From Salinibacter altiplanensis (GTDB lineage: Bacteria > Bacteroidota > Rhodothermia > Rhodothermales > Salinibacteraceae): DNA of 64,000 nt. Positions 27,294-62,602 of the stretch are shown here, one piece after another; position 1 is the stretch's first letter; every line of letters starts with the position of its first letter. The stretch covers positions 382,804 through 446,803 of the forward strand of contig NZ_NCQY01000020.1 in NCBI RefSeq assembly GCF_002894645.1, written 5' to 3'. The notes beneath the pieces were generated by a model that was not told the DNA's origin, did not search any database, and saw nothing but the letters and a program-made list of their open reading frames with translations. A program made the position numbers and the translations under genes.

Positions 27294-30200
27294 ATGGATA
27301 CAACGGTACAAAGGATAGGTTCTGCGGCACGCCCATGGACATTGTTCTTGGGCGCTGCCTTTGCACTTCTTGTCTCTGCATCGCTCTTTGCCGGGGCGGC
27401 CCTCGGTCAAGGGGCTGACCCTCCAGGCACATCGGTTGAACAGGAGGGAGAAGGCACCTGGCACGAGGACGTGCTCCGGATCAAGGTGGCCCCGGACGTT
27501 GCCGGTCAGGCGACGCCCATGAAGCAAAACGGGGTTGCGATGCTCGGCGTCCCCTCCATTGATGCACTCAATCAGGAGTACGACGCCGTCTCGATTGAGC
27601 CCCTGTTTGATGTAGGGGGCGAGTACGAGGAACGTCACCGCGACTACGGCCTCCACCGGTGGTACGAGATCCGTCTCGCCGACGGAAAGGCGTCGGCGGA
27701 CACGGACGTGGAGAGGGTCATGGGGGCATACTCGAATGCCTCGGCCGTCTCTGTGGCCGAAGGAAAGGCTCGGGCCGAGCAGCATGTCACCGAGCGCGGG
27801 TCGGCCCCAGCTACCTCTCTGCTTGACCCACTGCCCGGTCCCCCCGACGATCCGTTGTTTGGGGACCAGTACGGGTTCCAGAATATCGAGGCGGGAGGCG
27901 GATGGCAGACCCGAACTGGAGACACGACCGTCGTCGTGAGCATTCACGACTCGGGCATCAGTGGAAGCTTCGACGGGTCCGAAACGGATCTCAATCATCC
28001 GGACCTTGAGCCGAACGTCTGGTACGGCGGGGACCCGAGTGACGGAAGTGTTCACGGGAAGAACTTTCGTGCTGGTGATCCCGCAGACCTGACCGACAAC
28101 AACGGGCACGGGACGCATGTCACCGGGACGGTTGCCGCCGCGACCAACAACGGCTTCGGCGTGGCGGGGACGGCCGGCGGAAACGGAGAGTTTGCGGACG
28201 GACGTGGGGACGGGGTTCGCTTCATGGTCACTCCGGGCCTCAACCAGCCGGATGCATACATATACGCCGCCGACAACGGCGCGGCCGTCTCCCAGAACAG
28301 CTGGGGCTTTACGAGCCCGGGGGTATTCCCGCAGTCCCTGCAGGACGCCATCGACTACTTTATTGACAACGGCGGTGGCGATGATCTCGACGGAGGGATT
28401 GTCGTGTTCTCCGCTGGAAACGACGCCGACAACGGGGACTGGTTTCCGGCGGCCTACGAGCCAATCGTCTCGGTGGCTTCCACAGACCAGGCCGACAACG
28501 TGTCCACCTTCTCCAACTTTGGGGAATGGGTGGACATCGCCGCCCCGGGCACCGGGATTCTGAGCACTTGGATTGCGGGGCAGGGGAGTGTCGAGAGTAA
28601 CTTTGAGTTCCTGAGTGGGACCTCGATGGCCGCCCCTCACGTGTCGGGGGCCGCCGCGCTGGTGGTGTCCGAGTTCTCCGACGTCAGCAGCCCCGACCAG
28701 GTGGAGTCGATCCTGAAGGAGTCTGCGGACGACATTGGGGCGACGCTGGACATTGGGGCGGGTCGCCTCAACCTAGCCCAGGCACTGCAGGAGGATGACG
28801 GTACGGCCCCGGCGGCGATCACCGACCTCTCGGTCACCGACGTTGCGTCGGCCCACGTCGATCTGCAATGGACCGCCCCAGATGGGGAGCCAACGGTCTA
28901 CGACATTCGCTACTCCACCGACCCGATCGAGGGCGACCAGGACTTTGAGAACGCCACGCAGGCCGATGATCTCCCGTCCCCGTCTGCACCGGGAGAGACC
29001 GACGAGGCAGAGGTTGAGGGCTTGACGCCCGGCACGGAATACTTCTTCGCCGTCAAGTCGTCGGACACGTTTGGCAGTACGTCGGACCTGTCCAACGTCG
29101 CGTCGGCGACCACCGAGAACGCACCGGCGATCGCCGTGGATCCAGAGTCGGTGTCCCAAACGCTGAATACCGGAGAGTCCGGCACAGACAACTTCTCAAT
29201 CTTGAATGTCGGAGAAGACACGCTATCGTTCGCCCTGCAGGCCGGCACTGGTGGCTCTGACATCGCCGACCCGATCGGTGAACCAACGGAGGTTCGCAGC
29301 TTGGTTGGTGCGCTCCCCCCGCGCCTTGAGCAGATCGAGGCCAATCAACCCCAAGACCGATTCTCGGCGAGTGAGACGACGCACAAGCCCGAGGAGGGAG
29401 CCGTGCAGCAGCAATCCACGGAGGTGGAGGGTCGCTCTCTCGCCAAGCTACTTGACGAGGTCGGGACGACCGGCTTCGGGAATGACACCTTCAACCAGGA
29501 GTTCGAAATTTACTCTTTCGATCTTGGCGTTCCCTCCGAACTCACGCTGGTCGACGACGGCGTGGACTCCTTCGCCGGAAACTTCATCCAGGGGAATAAT
29601 GAGGAGCTCTATTGGATTGACAACGCGGACAACAACCTGAAAACATACGCTCTCGACGATGGGACGGTCGAGACGATTGGGGAGTTGAATCCGCAGTCCA
29701 GTGATCCAGGGTGGACCGACCTCGAGACGGATTACTCCACTGGGACGACGTACGTGACGACCACCGATGCGCTCTACGAACTCGATCCGCAGAACGCGGA
29801 GCTGACGCTCGTCGGGGAACTTCCCGGAAGCCTTCTGCCTGTCGCTTTCGCGATCGACGCTGAGGGACAAGGGTATCTCCACGACATTCAGGGGGACAAC
29901 ATCCTGACGGTCGACCTGCAAACGGCGGAGACGGAGGTGCTCGGGTCCACGGGCATCGACGCCAACTTCGCCCAGAGCATGACCTACGACCACGCGACGG
30001 ATCAGCTTCTGATGGCGGCATACAAGGGGTCCACGGCTTCTGTGCCCGCCGAACTCCGAGAGGTAGACACGGAGACGGGCAACACGGAGCTGATTGCCCC
30101 GATTGGCCCGGAAGGCGAGTCCAACGAACTCGGGTGGTTTGCCACGCCGGGGCCGAGCTTCCAGTGGTTGGCTGCCGAGCCGACCGAGGGGGAAGTGGCT

Positions 30201-33200
30201 GCGGGGGACCCGGGAGAAGAAATCACGCTTACCCTCGAGACCGTGGCGGACGATGAGAATGCGAATGACCTCATCGGGGGCCTCGAGTACTCCGGAAGCG
30301 TTCAGGTCGAGAGCAACGACCCGGGCACACCGGTCGAGGAAGTTCCGGTCACGCTGACCGTGGAAGGAACCCCGGCGATTTCCGTGGACGAGAGCCTCGA
30401 CTTCGGCGAGGTCTTCGCCGGCACGACGGGAGAGGACACGCTCACCGTCACGAACACGAGTGACGACGCCATTTTGCAGGTGGCCTCGATCGAGCTTGCC
30501 GAGGGAGACACGCCATTCTCGGTGGCGGACGCATCGCCGTTTGTCCTCAACCCGGGACAGAGTGGAAGCATCCCGCTCGTGTTCGAGCCGACGGAGAATG
30601 GCTCGTTCGAGACCACGCTCTCATTCGCGAACTCGGCCACGGGGACCCAGGAGGTCACGATCACCGGACAGGGATCGCCGTTCGTCTCGATTGAGCCGGA
30701 CGCGCTGGAGCAGGAGATCGACCTGACGACCGGTGACTCGACGGCCACCCAGGAGTTTACCATCACCAACGAGTTCAGTGAGAGCCTTCCGTTCTCGGTC
30801 CTGATCGAATCTCTGGAGTCGGAAAGCATGGACATTACGCCGAAGCTGGCGGATGAGAAGCTCCAGCGCTGGCGTCAGCTTCAGCAGACCGCGCCGCAAC
30901 TGGACGGAGAGACCCCGGAGCCATCTCTCGGACCCGTTCCCAGTGAGGGGCAGGCAACCACTCCTGCCGCGGCACGCCTCCTCGATGGTCCTCAGGTTTT
31001 GGAGGAAACGGGCGTGACGGCCTACGGAGCAGAGGTCCTTGCCCCTGAACTCGTGGCCTTCGACGTGGGCCTGCCGGGCGAATTCACGGTGGTCGACGAA
31101 GGGGTCGACTCATACGCTGGTAACTTCACCTTCGGCAACAACGAAGAAATCTACTGGATCGACAATACGGACAACACCCTCAAGACGTATGCGCTTGCGG
31201 ACGGGACCGTCGAGAGCATCGGGGAACTGAACCCGGTCGGGTCGGACGTCTCCTGGTCGGACCTGGAAACCAATCCGACGGACGGCACGACGTACGTGAC
31301 CGCTGGTGAGGGCAATACCAACCGGCTCTACGAGCTGGACGTAGACGACGCCGAGCTTGACCTCGTGGGGGAGTACGCGAGTGGAGACCTTGTGGTGGCC
31401 CTTGCGATCGACGGCGAAGGAAATGCGTACGCCCACGAGATCGCCAACGACGAAATTCTGAGCGTTGACCTTGAGACGGCGGAGACGGAGGTCGTGGGGC
31501 CCACGGGCATCGACGCCAACTTTGCCCAGAGCATGACCTACGACGCTGAGACGGGCCAGGTGCTCATGGCCGCGCTCCATGACTGCGGTCTCTTCGGCTG
31601 CGGGAGTGGTACTCTCCGCCAGGTGGACCGCGAGACCGGCAACACGACGCTGATTGGGCCTTTCCCGGAAGGAGGAAACGACGAGCTTGGCTGGATGGCC
31701 ACGCCGGGACAGGGCATTCCGTGGCTCGCGACGAACCTAGAAAACGGCACGGTGCCGGCTGGCGCCACGCTGGAACTAGAGGCAGAGTACGACGCCACCC
31801 AGATCGTCGAGGGCGACTACGAAGCCCAAATCAGCATCGTCGGGAATCAGCTGCAGGGCGAGCCGAGCGAGTCGGTCTCGGTCAACCTCTCGGTAGAGGC
31901 TGCACCAATTTCCTTCGTCTCGAAGGATTCGCTCGGATACGAGGACCTCTTCGTGGACGATACGTCGAGCACGCAGATGGTCACGCTCCGAAATGACGGC
32001 GCGGCTGACCTGAACGTGACAAACGTGTCGGTCGACTCGGAGAACTTCGCCTTCACCGGCGGCTCAGAGTTCACCCTCGAGCCGGGGGATGCACAAATCT
32101 TCGACGTCGCCTTCACGCCGCAGAGCGTCGGCGAATTCACGGCGACGATGACCATCGAGGGCGAAGAGATCTCGACCCGCGAGGTCACGCTTGTCGGCGA
32201 GGGCATCCCGGCGCCGGAGCTCGCGCTTGATCCGCAAGGCTTCGACAAGCAGGCCTACATTGGCCAGACGCAGGAGGAGACAGTCGCAGTCAGTAACGTG
32301 GGAGACGCCCCGCTGGACTACGAGCTTTCGGTCCTGCCGTCGCAGCCGCCGGTCGAAGATGTCCTCCTGAGTGAGGAAAACTTCGGCGGTGAGTTTCCGC
32401 CGGAGGGAGGCTGGTTCCGAACCGGTGCTAACGATGGGGAAAACTGGCGACAGGGAGGCCTTGGCTCTCCCGCCGAATCCCCCGAGGCAGAGTTCTACTG
32501 GAGCCCAACCACTGTGGGCACGCAGCGCATGGTGACGCCACAGTTGGACACCGAAGGCAAATCGGAGGTGGTGGTCGAGTTTGCCCACCTGATCAATGCC
32601 TTCTCCCCTGATGAATTCGACCTGCGGCTCGAAAGCACCGGCGACGGTGGAGAGACCTGGACCACGGTCAAGGAATTCCCGGCCGAAGATGTCGGTCCGA
32701 TCGAAGAGCAGATCGTGGTCAAGAATGAGGATGTGGGCTCGGATGAATTCCACCTGGCCTGGACGTTCGAGGGCGACTCCTTCCAGATCAACTGGTGGAG
32801 CGTTGATGATGTCCGGGTGTTCGACGGCAGCGAGTGGCTGGCTGTTGATCAGACGACCGGTACGCTCGAACCGTCCGAGTCGGACACGCTCGGCCTCAAC
32901 ATCGATACGACCGTGCCTGGATTGACTGAGGGCACGTACCAGTCGGGCCTTGGCTTCGTGACCAACGCGCCGCTTGCGGAGACCGCCGAGCTGCCGTTCA
33001 CGCTCGATGTAATCGAGGCCCTTTCTGTCACCCCTCAGGACGAGGGAGACGGCGAGGTCTTCCCCAGCGAGACGTTTACGCTGAACATGGACGTCGAAAG
33101 CCTCGATGACCTGGAGGTCTTCTCCTACCAGATGGAGATGGGCTTTAACACTGATCGAATGCAGGTGCAGGAGGTCACGACCGAGGGTACGCTCAGTGAA

Positions 33201-47359: not shown

Positions 47360-47673
47360 CTTGTTTGGAAATCAGTGGTGAACAACACGACGTTTAGATA
47401 GCAACATGCGCACCAAGTGCACGGGAGGTCGGATCGGGCCTGTCACTTCGGCAATGCTCGGACAAAAACGGGACGAGGGCCGATCCCATCCCGGAGAATC
47501 TGCGGGGAGGCCCCGACAATCCGTCGCACTTGGCATCCGCCGCGGGGAATCGTGAGGGAACAGGGAATCAAGGGCCCGGGAGCTGCGAAGGCAATGTGTC
47601 CAGAGTGCATGATCTGTTACTCGACCCCGTCCCTCACGTTTTTATGGAGGAGAAACAGCTGGGCATCGGCTTA
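47360..47673 (+). other. Intergenic region between the small gene and the MITE
   Basis: 314 bases without a convincing gene. It includes the upstream region of the 98-residue gene (minus strand) and ends at the TTA target duplication of the MITE. No clear promoter or terminator recognised. Confidence 0.4.
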
Positions 47674-47786
47674 GAACCTGTTTCAATTCATGTCTCGGGG
47701 CGCCCCACGACAGCCCTCGACCATGCGCTGATTTTCGGCTCATCGATGCTCGCGTCCCCCATCCGATCCAAAATCAAAACGGGTTC
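47674..47786 (+). mobile_element. MITE copy A (internally deleted), flanked by TTA
   Basis: A 113-base element with terminal inverted repeats GAACCTGTTT and AAACGGGTTC (one mismatch). It is flanked by the direct repeat TTA (47671-47673 and 47787-47789). It matches both ends of copies B (49922) and C (62387) but lacks about 110 internal bases. No coding capacity, so it must be moved in trans. The right-hand TTA is the complement of the ilvA stop codon TAA. Confidence 0.83.
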
Positions 47787-49001
47787 TTAGTGGACCCGCG
47801 TTACCTCGTACCCGTCATTTTCGATGGCCGCAATGGTGTTCTCGGCCTGGCCTCGGCCACTGGTGATGACTTCGAATACCAGGTACGCCTGGCCCACGTC
47901 GAGACCATGCACTGCCCGCTCGTGGCGCACGTGCCGGATGTTTGCGCCCTGACCGGCAATACGTTGGGAAATGTCGGCCATCTTCCCGGGCTGATCGTCG
48001 ATGCGGACCCGAAGACGGAGGAGTTGGATGCGGTCGGCCATGGCGTGGTCGAGCACCTCCTGCAGCCGCGCGGGGTCAATGTTGCCGCCGCACAGGAGGG
48101 GGACGACCGTCTCCCCCGTCACGTCCAGCTTGTCGGACAGCAGTGCGGCGACCGGAGCGGCCCCCGCCCCCTCCACCAGCTGCTTGGCCCGTTCAAGCAG
48201 CAGCAGAATGGCCCCGGCAATCTCGCCGTCGCTGACGGTGAGGACTTCGTCGACGTGATCGTCGATGAGCCCCAGGGTAAGCTCGGACACCCCGCCGGTG
48301 GCGATGCCGTCAGCGATGGTGTCCGGATGGTCGATGGGCACCGGAACGCCCTTGTCGAGACTCTGAGGAACCGTCGCGGCGCCCTCGGCCTGCACCCCCA
48401 CCACCCGCACGTCCGGGGCGATGTGCGCGAGGGCTACGCTGAGGCCGCCGATGAGGCCTCCGCCCCCAATCGGGGCAATGACGGTGTCGACATCGGGCAC
48501 CTGCTCGTGGAGCTCGAACCCAAGGGTGCCCTGCCCCGCCACGATGGCCGGGTCGTCGTATGCGTGGACGAAGAGGGTGTCGGTGCCCCGGGCCAGCTTC
48601 TGAGCGTGCGTCATCGCTTCCTGAAACGTGTCGCCCGTCAGTTCCACGTCGGCCCCGTAGCTGCGCGTTGCATCGACCTTTGCCTGGGGGGCATTGCGGG
48701 GCATCACGATCGTCGAGGGCAGGCCGACCGTCGTCGCCGCCAGGGCTACGCCCTGGGCGTGATTGCCGGCACTGGCGGCCACCACCTGCGCGATGGCCCC
48801 GGACGCCGCCTGAACGAGCTTGTTGTACGCCCCGCGTGTCTTGAACGACCCCGTGCGCTGCAGGTGCTCCATCTTGAGAATGGCGGTGGCCCCGGACAGC
48901 TCCGAGAGCGAGCGGCAGGAGTCAATCGGGGTTCTGCGTACGACGGACGGGTCGTCCAGGCGCTTGCGGGCAGCACGAACGTCGTCGATGGTGAGGGACA
49001 T
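47787..49001 (-). CDS. ilvA: Threonine ammonia-lyase (threonine dehydratase)
   Basis: PLP fold-type II enzyme of 404 residues, deaminating threonine to 2-oxobutanoate, the first step to isoleucine. The Schiff-base lysine is Lys54 in TGSFKTRGAYNK; the phosphate-binding loop is PIGGGGLIGG (about 180-189), and SAGNHAQGVA is present. The C-terminal 75 residues form an ACT-like regulatory domain (RIQLLRLRVRIDDQPGKMAD, HVRHERAVHG), typical of the shorter IlvA/TdcB type. The ATG at 49001 (MSLTIDDVRAARKRL) is the family start. The TAA stop coincides with the target duplication of MITE copy A, and the C-terminus looks complete. Confidence 0.94.
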   Translation of the reverse strand: MSLTIDDVRAARKRLDDPSVVRRTPIDSCRSLSELSGATAILKMEHLQRTGSFKTRGAYNKLVQAASGAIAQVVAASAGNHAQGVALAATTVGLPSTIVMPRNAPQAKVDATRSYGADVELTGDTFQEAMTHAQKLARGTDTLFVHAYDDPAIVAGQGTLGFELHEQVPDVDTVIAPIGGGGLIGGLSVALAHIAPDVRVVGVQAEGAATVPQSLDKGVPVPIDHPDTIADGIATGGVSELTLGLIDDHVDEVLTVSDGEIAGAILLLLERAKQLVEGAGAAPVAALLSDKLDVTGETVVPLLCGGNIDPARLQEVLDHAMADRIQLLRLRVRIDDQPGKMADISQRIAGQGANIRHVRHERAVHGLDVGQAYLVFEVITSGRGQAENTIAAIENDGYEVTRVH

Positions 49002-49216
49002 GGGCGAAATTGAGTGGATCGGAAGAAGAGAAGCCCGGAAGGGGAACGGTTGCCGGCCCGGAATGGGTCGGTCCCGGGGAATGACCCAGGGCGAACGTGG
49101 CACTTCGATTGAGAAATGGAAGGCACGGGCAAGATAGGTGTCGGGGCCCAGTCGTCCAAACGTCCTTGGCACGCGGAGGCAGCACGTGACGTCCCACAGG
49201 GGCCGCCGAACATCTA

Positions 49217-49236
49217 GTTGAAATGGTCGTTCCAAA
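49217..49236. promoter_or_regulatory. Candidate TetR operator upstream of tetR
   Basis: GTTGAAA-N6-TTCCAAA: an imperfect 7-6-7 dyad whose TTCCAAA half matches the perfect dyad at 50179-50198. It lies 56 bases before the tetR start, in the ilvA-tetR divergent spacer, where autoregulation would act. Confidence 0.6.
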
Positions 49237-49291: not shown

Positions 49292-49921
49292 ATGCCCCGA
49301 TCCCCGACGTTTGACCGCGATGCCAAAATTGAGCAGGCGATGCAGCTCTTCTGGGAAAAGGGCTACGAGGCGACCAGTGTGCAGGACCTAGTGGACCACC
49401 TGGAGCTCAACCGGAGCAGCCTGTACAATGCCTTCGGGGGCAAGCACGAGTTGTACCTGGAGGCGCTCGACCGGTACCGGCAGGAAGACATCGAGTGGCT
49501 GCGGGGGCAGCTTCGAGGGGCCCCGACCGCGGTGGACGGCATTCGGCAGGCCTTCGTGGCGGTGGCCGAGCGGGCGACGGAGAGCTGCTGTGGATGCTTT
49601 ACGACCAACGCGGCGGTGGAGTGCGCCCCGCGGGACGGGTCAACCCAAGAACGAGCCCGAGAAAGCTTTAAAGAAATGCGCTCTCTGTTTCGGGCGGCCG
49701 TGGAGCGGGCCCAGGAGGCAGGTGCCATCGACGCTTCCCGCGACGCGAAGGCCCTCGGCTGTCACCTCACAAACGCTTACAACGGCATCCACCTGACCGC
49801 CAAGACCGATCCTCCCAATGAAGTCGTGCAGGACATTGTCGAGGCGACCCTCCAGGGAATTACCTGTGCCACCAGCGACTCACCGACCGCGCACCGACCC
49901 GGCTCGCCCGACCCAGACTGA
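49292..49921 (+). CDS. TetR-family transcriptional regulator
   Basis: A 209-residue DNA-binding regulator. The N-terminal helix-turn-helix is clear: AMQLFWEKGYEATSVQDLVD then LELNRSSLYNAFGGKHELYL (about 15-55). The C-terminal ligand domain contains ESCCGCFTTNAAVECAP, with four cysteines. In the NemR-like and related TetR proteins a cysteine in a GC-type loop senses electrophiles, so a redox or electrophile signal is plausible here. ATG 49292 starts at MPRSPTFDRDAKIEQ. Matching operator-like dyads lie upstream of this gene and upstream of the nitroreductase. The TGA stop is also the 3-base target duplication of MITE copy B. Confidence 0.87.
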   Translation: MPRSPTFDRDAKIEQAMQLFWEKGYEATSVQDLVDHLELNRSSLYNAFGGKHELYLEALDRYRQEDIEWLRGQLRGAPTAVDGIRQAFVAVAERATESCCGCFTTNAAVECAPRDGSTQERARESFKEMRSLFRAAVERAQEAGAIDASRDAKALGCHLTNAYNGIHLTAKTDPPNEVVQDIVEATLQGITCATSDSPTAHRPGSPDPD

Positions 49922-50147
49922 GAACCTGTTTCACTTTCTGTCTCGGGGCTCCGAGCGGCAGTGAGGGCCTGCACATCGCCTCCGGTCTCAGGCGGTAGCA
50001 CTCTGAACGCACTTCACTGCACGGCAGCACTAGCTTCGCGTCGCGTCGCTGGCGCTCAGGGCGCACCACGACAGCCCTCGGCCATGCGCCGATTTTCGGC
50101 TCATCGATGCTCGCTCTCCCCATCCGATCCAAAACCAAAACAGGTTC
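49922..50147 (+). mobile_element. MITE copy B (full length), flanked by TGA
   Basis: A 226-base element with perfect 10-base terminal inverted repeats GAACCTGTTT/AAACAGGTTC and a 3-base target duplication TGA (49919-49921 and 50148-50150). Same orientation as copy A, and closely similar over its whole length to copy C in reverse. No protein-coding capacity. The left TGA is the tetR stop codon. The element separates tetR from the nitroreductase operon. Confidence 0.88.
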
Positions 50148-50178
50148 TGAGTCTCGTCACAAAAACGTGATGACTTAA

Positions 50179-50198
50179 TTTGGAACACTCATTCCAAA
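50179..50198. promoter_or_regulatory. Candidate TetR operator upstream of the nitroreductase operon
   Basis: A perfect 20-base dyad TTTGGAA-CACTCA-TTCCAAA, 91 bases before the nitroreductase ATG. It sits in an AT-rich patch with TTTAGAT just downstream (50204-50210), so a bound repressor could overlap the promoter. Its half-sites match the dyad before tetR. Confidence 0.7.
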
Positions 50199-50289: not shown

Positions 50290-50934
50290 ATGGCCTCGTC
50301 TCCAGCCGCACAGCACCCGAAAACCGCCGATCCCGACCACGACGTCCTAGCCCTCCTCCGTGAGCGGTGGAGTCCGCGTGCCTTCGCCGACCGGCGTGTG
50401 GAGCCGGCGAAGATTCGGCGCATGCTGGAGGCGGCTCGGTGGACGATGTCATCCTACAACGAGCAGCCGTGGCGGTACGTCGTTGCGTCGCGGCACGACG
50501 ACCCGGAGGCGCACGAGCAGCTTCTCGCCTGCCTGATCGACGGAAATCAGGCCTGGGCCCAGGAGGCCCCGGTGCTGATGATGTCCTTCTACAAGAAGAC
50601 GTTTTCGGAAAACGATCGTCCGAACCGATGTGCCCCTCACGATGTCGGGGCCGCCTCCGCCGCGCTCACCTTCCAGGCGACGGCGATGGACCTCTACGTT
50701 CACCAGATGGCCGGTATTCGGAAAGACGTGGCCCGCGAGACCTACGATGTGCCGGACGATTTTGAGCCAATGGCGGGGCTCGCAGTGGGGGAGTTGGGCG
50801 ACCCGGAGATGCTGAGCGACGACAAGCGAACGGCCGAACAAGCGCCCCGCTCCCGCCAGTCGCTCGATGAATTTGTGTTCGGAGACGACTGGCAGGCCCC
50901 GTCATCCCTTGTCGTAGAGGAATCATCTTCCTAG
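50290..50934 (+). CDS. Nitroreductase-family flavoprotein
   Basis: FMN-dependent NAD(P)H oxidoreductase of 214 residues, reducing nitroaromatics, quinones or related electrophiles. Family motifs are RERWSPRAFADRRV (phosphate-binding Arg residues), ARWTMSSYNEQPWRYVVA (about 49-66), FQATAMDLYVHQMAG, and a Gly-rich late strand (FEPMAGLAVGELGD). The putative TetR operator is 91 bases upstream. The start ATG 50290 is the only good one. It is followed after 18 bases by the DoxX-like gene, so the two probably form an operon for electrophile or quinone stress. Confidence 0.9.
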   Translation: MASSPAAQHPKTADPDHDVLALLRERWSPRAFADRRVEPAKIRRMLEAARWTMSSYNEQPWRYVVASRHDDPEAHEQLLACLIDGNQAWAQEAPVLMMSFYKKTFSENDRPNRCAPHDVGAASAALTFQATAMDLYVHQMAGIRKDVARETYDVPDDFEPMAGLAVGELGDPEMLSDDKRTAEQAPRSRQSLDEFVFGDDWQAPSSLVVEESSS

Positions 50935-50952: not shown

Positions 50953-51333
50953 ATGCGCACGAAGTATCTCTACTGGGGGTCAACCAGCCTCGTGGCCCTC
51001 TTCATGATGGTCTCGGCGACGCTCTACTTTGTGGCCGACGGCCCGGCGGCGGCCTTCAAGCGACTTGGCTTCCCCGACTACTTTCGGATCGAGCTCGGAA
51101 TCGCCAAGCTTGCCGGGGCGGTGGTGCTGGTTGCCCCTCTACCTCGGGCTTTGAAAGAGTGGGCCTACGCCGGCTTTGCGATCAGTTTTGTGTCTGCTGT
51201 CATCGCCCACGCGGCCGTCGGAGACCCCCCGTCCGAGCTCCTTCCACCGGGGATCGCGTTTGCGCTTCTGATGACCTCGTACGTAACCTATCACCGATAT
51301 TACCGACCCGAGTCGCCCTCCGATGACGCCTGA
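50953..51333 (+). CDS. DoxX-like small membrane protein
   Basis: A 126-residue protein with four hydrophobic helices: LVALFMMVSATLYFVA, FRIELGIAKLAGAVVLVAPL, WAYAGFAISFVSAVIAHAAV and PPGIAFALLMTSYVTYH. The GFPDYFRIELGIAKLAGA stretch is characteristic of the DoxX_2 family. An AGAGGT ribosome-binding site lies a few bases before the ATG. DoxX proteins often accompany oxidoreductases and redox-stress genes, consistent with the nitroreductase 18 bases upstream. The exact role is unknown. Confidence 0.83.
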   Translation: MRTKYLYWGSTSLVALFMMVSATLYFVADGPAAAFKRLGFPDYFRIELGIAKLAGAVVLVAPLPRALKEWAYAGFAISFVSAVIAHAAVGDPPSELLPPGIAFALLMTSYVTYHRYYRPESPSDDA

Positions 51334-62386: not shown

Positions 62387-62602
62387 GAACCTGTTTTGAT
62401 TTTGGATCGGATGGGGGGAACGAGCATCGATGAGCCGACAATTGGCCCATGGCCGAGGGCTGTCGTGGGGCGCCCTGAGTGCCAGCGAAGCTAGTGCTGC
62501 CGTGCAGTGAAGTGCTTTCAGAGTGCTACTGCCTAAGCCCGGCGGCGATGTGCAAGCCCTCACTGCTGCTCGGAGCCCCGAGGCGGAAATTGAAACAGGT
62601 TC
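62387..62602 (-). mobile_element. MITE copy C (full length, inverted)
   Basis: A 216-base element with perfect terminal inverted repeats GAACCTGTTT/AAACAGGTTC. Its reverse complement aligns along its whole length with copy B. Flanking triplets are TAC (62384-62386) and TAA (62603-62605), an imperfect trace of a TNA duplication. No coding capacity. It lies 46 bases downstream of the permease stop on the other side. Confidence 0.85.

What the first reader, a model, noticed from the sequence alone, without database searches (positions are those of the whole stretch)
49919..50150. MITE inserted exactly at the tetR stop codon
The 3-base duplication flanking copy B is TGA, and the left copy is the in-frame TGA stop of the TetR gene (49919-49921). 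Duplicating the stop leaves the gene product unchanged while placing 226 bases of transposon between tetR and the nitroreductase operon. A TNA-targeting element would naturally find TGA/TAA stops neutral landing sites.
Basis: partly seen in the sequence, partly recalled or inferred. Interest (0 to 1): 0.58.

Follow-up and report, generated by a model that had tools for sequence, protein, structure and literature searches.

The report
Transposon fragments sitting on stop codons
A short non-coding transposon sits exactly behind the stop codon of a regulator gene without changing its protein, and copies of the same family land on or just behind gene ends far more often than the available target sites would predict.

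Summary
A 226-bp MITE (49922-50147) is flanked by TGA/TGA, and the left TGA is the in-frame stop of tetR. The family is an IS5/IS1031-type MITE with GAACCTGTTT ends, target CTNAG and a 3-bp duplication. All two-ended copies begin with G and nearly all end with C, so insertion rebuilds CTNAG on both sides and any stop codon inside it survives. Available non-coding YTNAG sites give 7% on stops and 20% on or within 50 bp of them. Within the 3' zone, stop overlap (10/20) is not above target availability (36%), so survival of harmless insertions suffices; active stop targeting is not needed. Four of the five other own-genome stop sites have their stop at the same codon in insertion-free relatives. 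The tetR case is odd: five relatives stop about 10 codons earlier, and three lack the predicted single TGA. The insertion did not truncate TetR, but this TGA is a derived stop. A new member of a known kind with a clear insertion pattern.

The parts
49292..49921 (+). tetR gene (TetR_N + TetR_C_13); longest ORF starts at 49223
49919..49921 (+). in-frame TGA stop of tetR = left copy of the 3-bp target duplication (pentamer CTGAG)
49922..50147 (+). MITE copy B, 226 bp, imperfect terminal inverted repeats GAACCTGTTTC / GAACCTGTTTTG
50148..50150 (+). right TGA copy of the target duplication
50154..50173 (+). terminator-like hairpin CGTCAC...GTGATG, also seen in three insertion-free relatives; now separated from tetR by the MITE
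   Evidence: consensus match, not function
50180..50197 (.). inverted repeat TTGGAA-N6-TTCCAA, read as candidate TetR operator (inference)
   Evidence: sequence; GGAAC...GTTCC core seen in relatives
50290..50934 (+). nitroreductase gene
50953..51333 (+). DoxX-like gene
47674..47786 (+). MITE copy A (113 bp, internally deleted form), TTA/TTA at 47671-47673 and 47787-47789; right TTA = TAA stop of the minus-strand gene
47787..49235 (-). PLP-dependent enzyme with ACT domain (threonine dehydratase-like); its stop codon is the target of copy A; true start probably inside the longest ORF
62387..62602 (-). MITE copy C (216 bp), flanks TTA/GTA, 42 bp past a predicted gene end

Best explanation
Copy B is a non-autonomous MITE of an IS5-family, IS1031-type element. 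The transposase chose a CTNAG pentamer, here CTGAG, and duplicated its TNA. Because the element begins with G and ends with C, both junctions again read CTNAG, so a stop codon lying in the pentamer stays a stop and the gene product is unchanged. Insertions in coding sequence, and probably at gene starts, are lost by selection. The survivors therefore pile up at gene 3' ends, and since CTNAG always contains a stop trinucleotide on at least one strand, a large share of harmless 3' sites are the stop codons themselves. Shown: target, duplication, stop overlap, 3' bias, stops at the same codon in relatives at four sites. Inferred: mobilisation by the IS5-type transposase, and selection rather than targeting as the cause.
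For: Target and ends: C outside the left duplication in 28 of 37 copies and G outside the right in 31 of 37, first element base G in 37 of 37, last base C in 36 of 37, exact 3-bp duplication in 21 of 37. Partner IS: a 912-bp element in the same genome, ends GAGACCGTTTTGATTT/GAGTCTGTTTTGATTT, TAA/TAA at CTAAG. An intact 895-bp relative in G003 has a transposase that passes NCBIfam transpos_IS5_3 (181 bits, cut-off 110). Five other places in the own genome share the exact 17-mer GAGTCTGTTTTGATTTT with the IS end. Stop overlap in 10 of 37 copies: 6 of 26 in the own genome, 4 of 11 in G003/G011. Null: 29 of 412 non-coding YTNAG sites; Fisher P=2e-4, or 8e-4 without copy B. 3' zone: 20 of 34 against 81 of 412, P=2e-6. 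Stable under gene-finder thresholds 5 to 40. Stop at the same codon in insertion-free relatives for L002, L045, L059 and win47.
Against: Genes come from a simple codon-usage finder that I trained on 22 long ORFs of the window. The null is a 464-kb sample of the own genome, applied to copies of G003 and G011 too. If the null non-coding set is overcounted 1.5-fold, the stop P rises to 2e-3. The first copy search scored 40 of 57 candidates, and 17 of 54 places were dropped because an end was missing or unclear. The transposase gene in the own genome is in two open pieces, and movement was not shown. None of five full-length IS elements examined overlaps a stop. The deficit near gene starts (2 of 34 against 67 of 412) is only P=0.08. 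At L041 the one relative found runs a few codons past the site.
Confidence: 0.8

Rival explanations
1. Active preference: the transposase is drawn to gene ends or stop codons (for example by terminator structure or stalled transcription), beyond the CTNAG motif.
For: 20 of 34 non-coding copies lie on or within 50 bp 3' of a stop against 20% of available sites.
Against: Within the 3' zone stop overlap is 10 of 20 against 29 of 81 in the null, P=0.14. Five full-length IS elements show no stop overlap. Survival bias gives the same picture.
Confidence: 0.15
2. Adaptive retention: the structured MITE acts as terminator, mRNA 3' stabiliser or insulator and is kept behind genes for that.
For: Copy B folds better than shuffles on both strands (z -2.4 and -4.3). 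It separates tetR from the hairpin and the nitroreductase genes.
Against: No terminator-like site inside the MITE in the scan. Copies at stops lie in both orientations relative to the gene, 5 and 5. Good folding is expected of any element with inverted repeats.
Confidence: 0.12
3. The insertion truncated a longer tetR, and the TGA is a stop only because of the element.
For: The tail AHRPGSPDPD has no counterpart in relatives.
Against: Relatives' genes end about 10 codons before, not after, the site (5 of 5). The stop lies wholly in the duplicated target, so it was there before the insertion.
Confidence: 0.03
4. Chance: one coincidence among many copies.
For: About 7% of non-coding target sites overlap a stop, so 2 of 34 would be expected.
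Against: 10 of 34 observed, replicated in a second set of genomes (4 of 10 non-coding copies, P=0.004).
Confidence: 0.05

Closest known systems
IS5 family, IS1031 subgroup (for example ISLrh, 857 bp, ends GAACCTGTCTAGTATCT, 3-bp TNA duplication, inserted at TGA; PMC12016507, passage read)
   Same: GAACCTGT start of the ends, TNA duplication, IS5-type transposase in the partner element
   Different: the window element is 226 bp and codes for nothing recognised; target extended to CTNAG here
MITEs mobilised by co-resident IS elements, such as MITEAba12/ISAba12 (PMC6382973, passages read) and RUP/IS630-Spn1 (PMC2229807, passages read)
   Same: short, multicopy, ends shared with a co-resident IS, target duplication
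   Different: 9-bp or TA targets there; the MITEAba12 copies described truncate a gene or disrupt hns, whereas here stop codons are preserved

Membership tests
IS5-family (IS1031-type) MITE | 3-bp TNA target duplication | tested here: met
   21 of 37 copies exact; TNA on the left in 28 of 37 and on the right in 25 of 37
IS5-family (IS1031-type) MITE | terminal inverted repeats shared with an IS5-family element in the same genome | tested here: met
   GAGTC-type copies share an exact 17-mer with the own IS; the GAACC type to which copy B belongs differs from it at 2 of the 17 positions
IS5-family (IS1031-type) MITE | partner transposase is IS5-family | tested here: met
   G003 intact copy 181 bits, cut-off 110; own fragment 91 bits, below cut-off; DDE_Tnp_1 in own genome
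IS5-family (IS1031-type) MITE | assignment to the IS1031 subgroup by a transposase tree | not tested
   rests on target and end resemblance to ISLrh
IS5-family (IS1031-type) MITE | intact autonomous partner in the same genome (not strictly required of a MITE) | tested here: inconclusive
   the own transposase gene is in two open pieces of 167 and 160 aa; whether frameshifting joins them was not tested; an intact relative is in G003
IS5-family (IS1031-type) MITE | movement by the partner transposase | not testable with these tools
   needs a transposition assay

The most novel reading that the evidence does not exclude
The ends (G...C) and target (CTNAG) of this IS5-type lineage form a stop-preserving insertion design: every stop codon in any register of the pentamer is rebuilt on both sides, with the element supplying the missing base for TAG. 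The lineage may have been selected to settle on stop codons as a safe harbour in compact, GC-rich genomes.
Probability: 0.2. Interest if true: 0.6.

Novelty: new member of a known kind. Interest (0 to 1): 0.4.

Why it matters
Stop codons as neutral harbours would give compact bacterial genomes a place to keep transposon copies that break neither the gene upstream nor the promoter downstream. The prediction can be tested in any IS5-type element with a CTNAG target, and unselected insertions would separate targeting from survival. For annotation, it warns that a gene ending exactly at a transposon edge need not be truncated.

Tried and rejected
Truncation of tetR by the insertion was rejected from relatives. 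A second reading, that the five bases AGTCT right of the duplication belong to the element, was rejected because other copies do not carry them. They remain unexplained as a difference to G003, G004 and G010. The TetR of G011 (L034) was left out of the comparison as too distant. MITE search in plasmids: no match. MITE search in three genomes of other genera (G014, G021, G015) gave two partial matches in one of them and no usable copies. Paper searches for MITEs in Salinibacter, IS in Salinibacter, CTNAG targets, MITEs with stop codons and stop-restoring insertions: I judged from their listings only; I read passages of two papers; searches returned none. None that I saw describes this pattern; most subscription journals are not in the library. 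The genus name is not given by the tools; Salinibacter is my guess from recall.

Full report
Observation. The window holds a TetR gene whose in-frame TGA stop is at 49919-49921. A 226-bp element follows at 49922-50147, then a second TGA at 50148-50150. TetR, and the nitroreductase and DoxX domains downstream, were confirmed. The element belongs to a family with 44 matching stretches in the own genome, 40 of 57 first-look candidates scored.

Family anatomy. I read 34 distinct places of the own genome by eye and kept 23 with both ends; 11 were dropped because an end was missing or unclear. Eight further loci gave 3 more (five dropped), and 12 loci of G003 and G011 gave 11 (one dropped). So 37 two-ended copies were analysed out of 54 places. 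Lengths run from 105 to 261 bp. The 3-bp duplication is exact in 21 of 37. The base before it is C in 28 and the base after it is G in 31. The element's first base is G in 37 of 37 and its last is C in 36 of 37. The target is thus CTNAG, and both junctions read CTNAG again after insertion.

Partner. The own genome holds a 912-bp element with ends GAGACCGTTTTGATTT and GAGTCTGTTTTGATTT and TAA duplications. Its transposase gene is in two open pieces. G003 holds an intact 895-bp relative that passes the IS5 family model. Five places of the own genome other than the IS carry exactly its 17-base end; the GAACC type to which copy B belongs differs at two positions. ISLrh of the IS1031 subgroup has GAACCTGT ends and a TNA duplication (PMC12016507, passage). 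I therefore read the family as IS5/IS1031-type MITEs. A tree was not made, and movement was not shown.

Stop codons. I joined the flanks at each copy and called genes with a simple codon-usage finder trained on 22 long ORFs of the window. The pentamer overlaps a stop codon in 6 of 26 own copies (win50, L002, win47, L041, L045, L059) and 4 of 11 copies in G003 and G011 (L138, L142, L143, L147). Seven of the nine genes other than tetR have a Pfam match, six above the curated cut-off and L002 slightly below it; L041 and L142 have none. In L041, L045 and L059 the stop is TAG, and its outer base is supplied by the element's terminal base (with the rule above). A further 10 of 37 lie within 50 bp 3' of a stop, 2 near a start, 3 inside a predicted gene.

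Null. In 464 kb of the own genome (window plus 400 kb sampled), 412 YTNAG sites are non-coding by the same finder. 29 overlap a stop, 52 more lie within 50 bp 3' of one, and 67 lie within 50 bp of a start. Observed 10 of 34 against 29 of 412: P=2e-4; without copy B, which prompted the test, P=8e-4. 3' zone 20 of 34 against 81 of 412: P=2e-6. G003 and G011 alone give 4 of 10 on stops, P=0.004. Thresholds of 5 to 40 leave the result standing, and inflating the null 1.5-fold gives P=2e-3. Inside the 3' zone stops are not in excess: 10 of 20 against 36%, P=0.14. So the excess at stops follows from the 3' bias plus the make-up of the target, and survival of harmless insertions explains it. The deficit near starts, which survival would also predict, is weak: 2 of 34 against 67 of 412, P=0.08.

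Relatives. For four of the other five own-genome stop copies, insertion-free G003, G004 or G010 have a stop at the same codon, sometimes as another stop triplet: L002, L059 and win47 in three of three, L045 in two of three, the third (G003) ending one codon earlier. For L041 the single relative found has a longer tail. For copy B, G003, G004 and G010 lack the element; their TetR ends about 10 codons earlier, as do those of G005 and G006. The three close relatives read GACTGCGTCAC; the window without the element would read GACTGAGTCTCGTCAC. So the window's stop and its CTGAG target most likely arose after an older stop was lost, and the five bases AGTCT are new in this lineage or lost in the others. 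The insertion then left the protein as it was.

Effect on the operon. The element lies upstream of a hairpin (50154-50173) that is also seen in the relatives, and of the palindrome TTGGAA-N6-TTCCAA (50180-50197), which I take for the TetR operator. Both are untouched. The MITE folds strongly on both strands, but the scan finds no terminator in it. I expect little effect on expression; this is inference.

Verdict. The finding is right and larger than stated: stop codons are a recurrent harbour of this family. The element type is known, and the pattern is explained by target, ends and survival.

Noticed in passing
49916-50155: Five bases (AGTCT) right of the duplication are absent from G003, G004 and G010; with the left flank they form AGACT-G-AGTCT, a palindrome around one base. 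Origin unexplained.
   Followed up: partly
49889-49921: Window TetR has a tail about 10 residues longer than five relatives; the stop of the close relatives aligns with an Ala codon.
   Followed up: yes
L056:1172-1341: The right duplication of a GAGTC-type copy ends one base before the ATG of a downstream predicted gene (start at +4).
   Followed up: no
50154-50197: Hairpin followed by an inverted repeat between tetR and the nitroreductase gene, also present in relatives: likely tetR terminator and TetR operator.
   Followed up: partly
29895-30019 and 31449-31573: Direct repeat of 125 bp, 81% identical, elsewhere in the window.
   Followed up: no
G000 genome and congeners: The family is patchy: abundant in the own genome, 8 matches in G011 and 4 in G003, none in the other 10 of 12 congeners searched with the short form at E<=1e-4.
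   Followed up: partly
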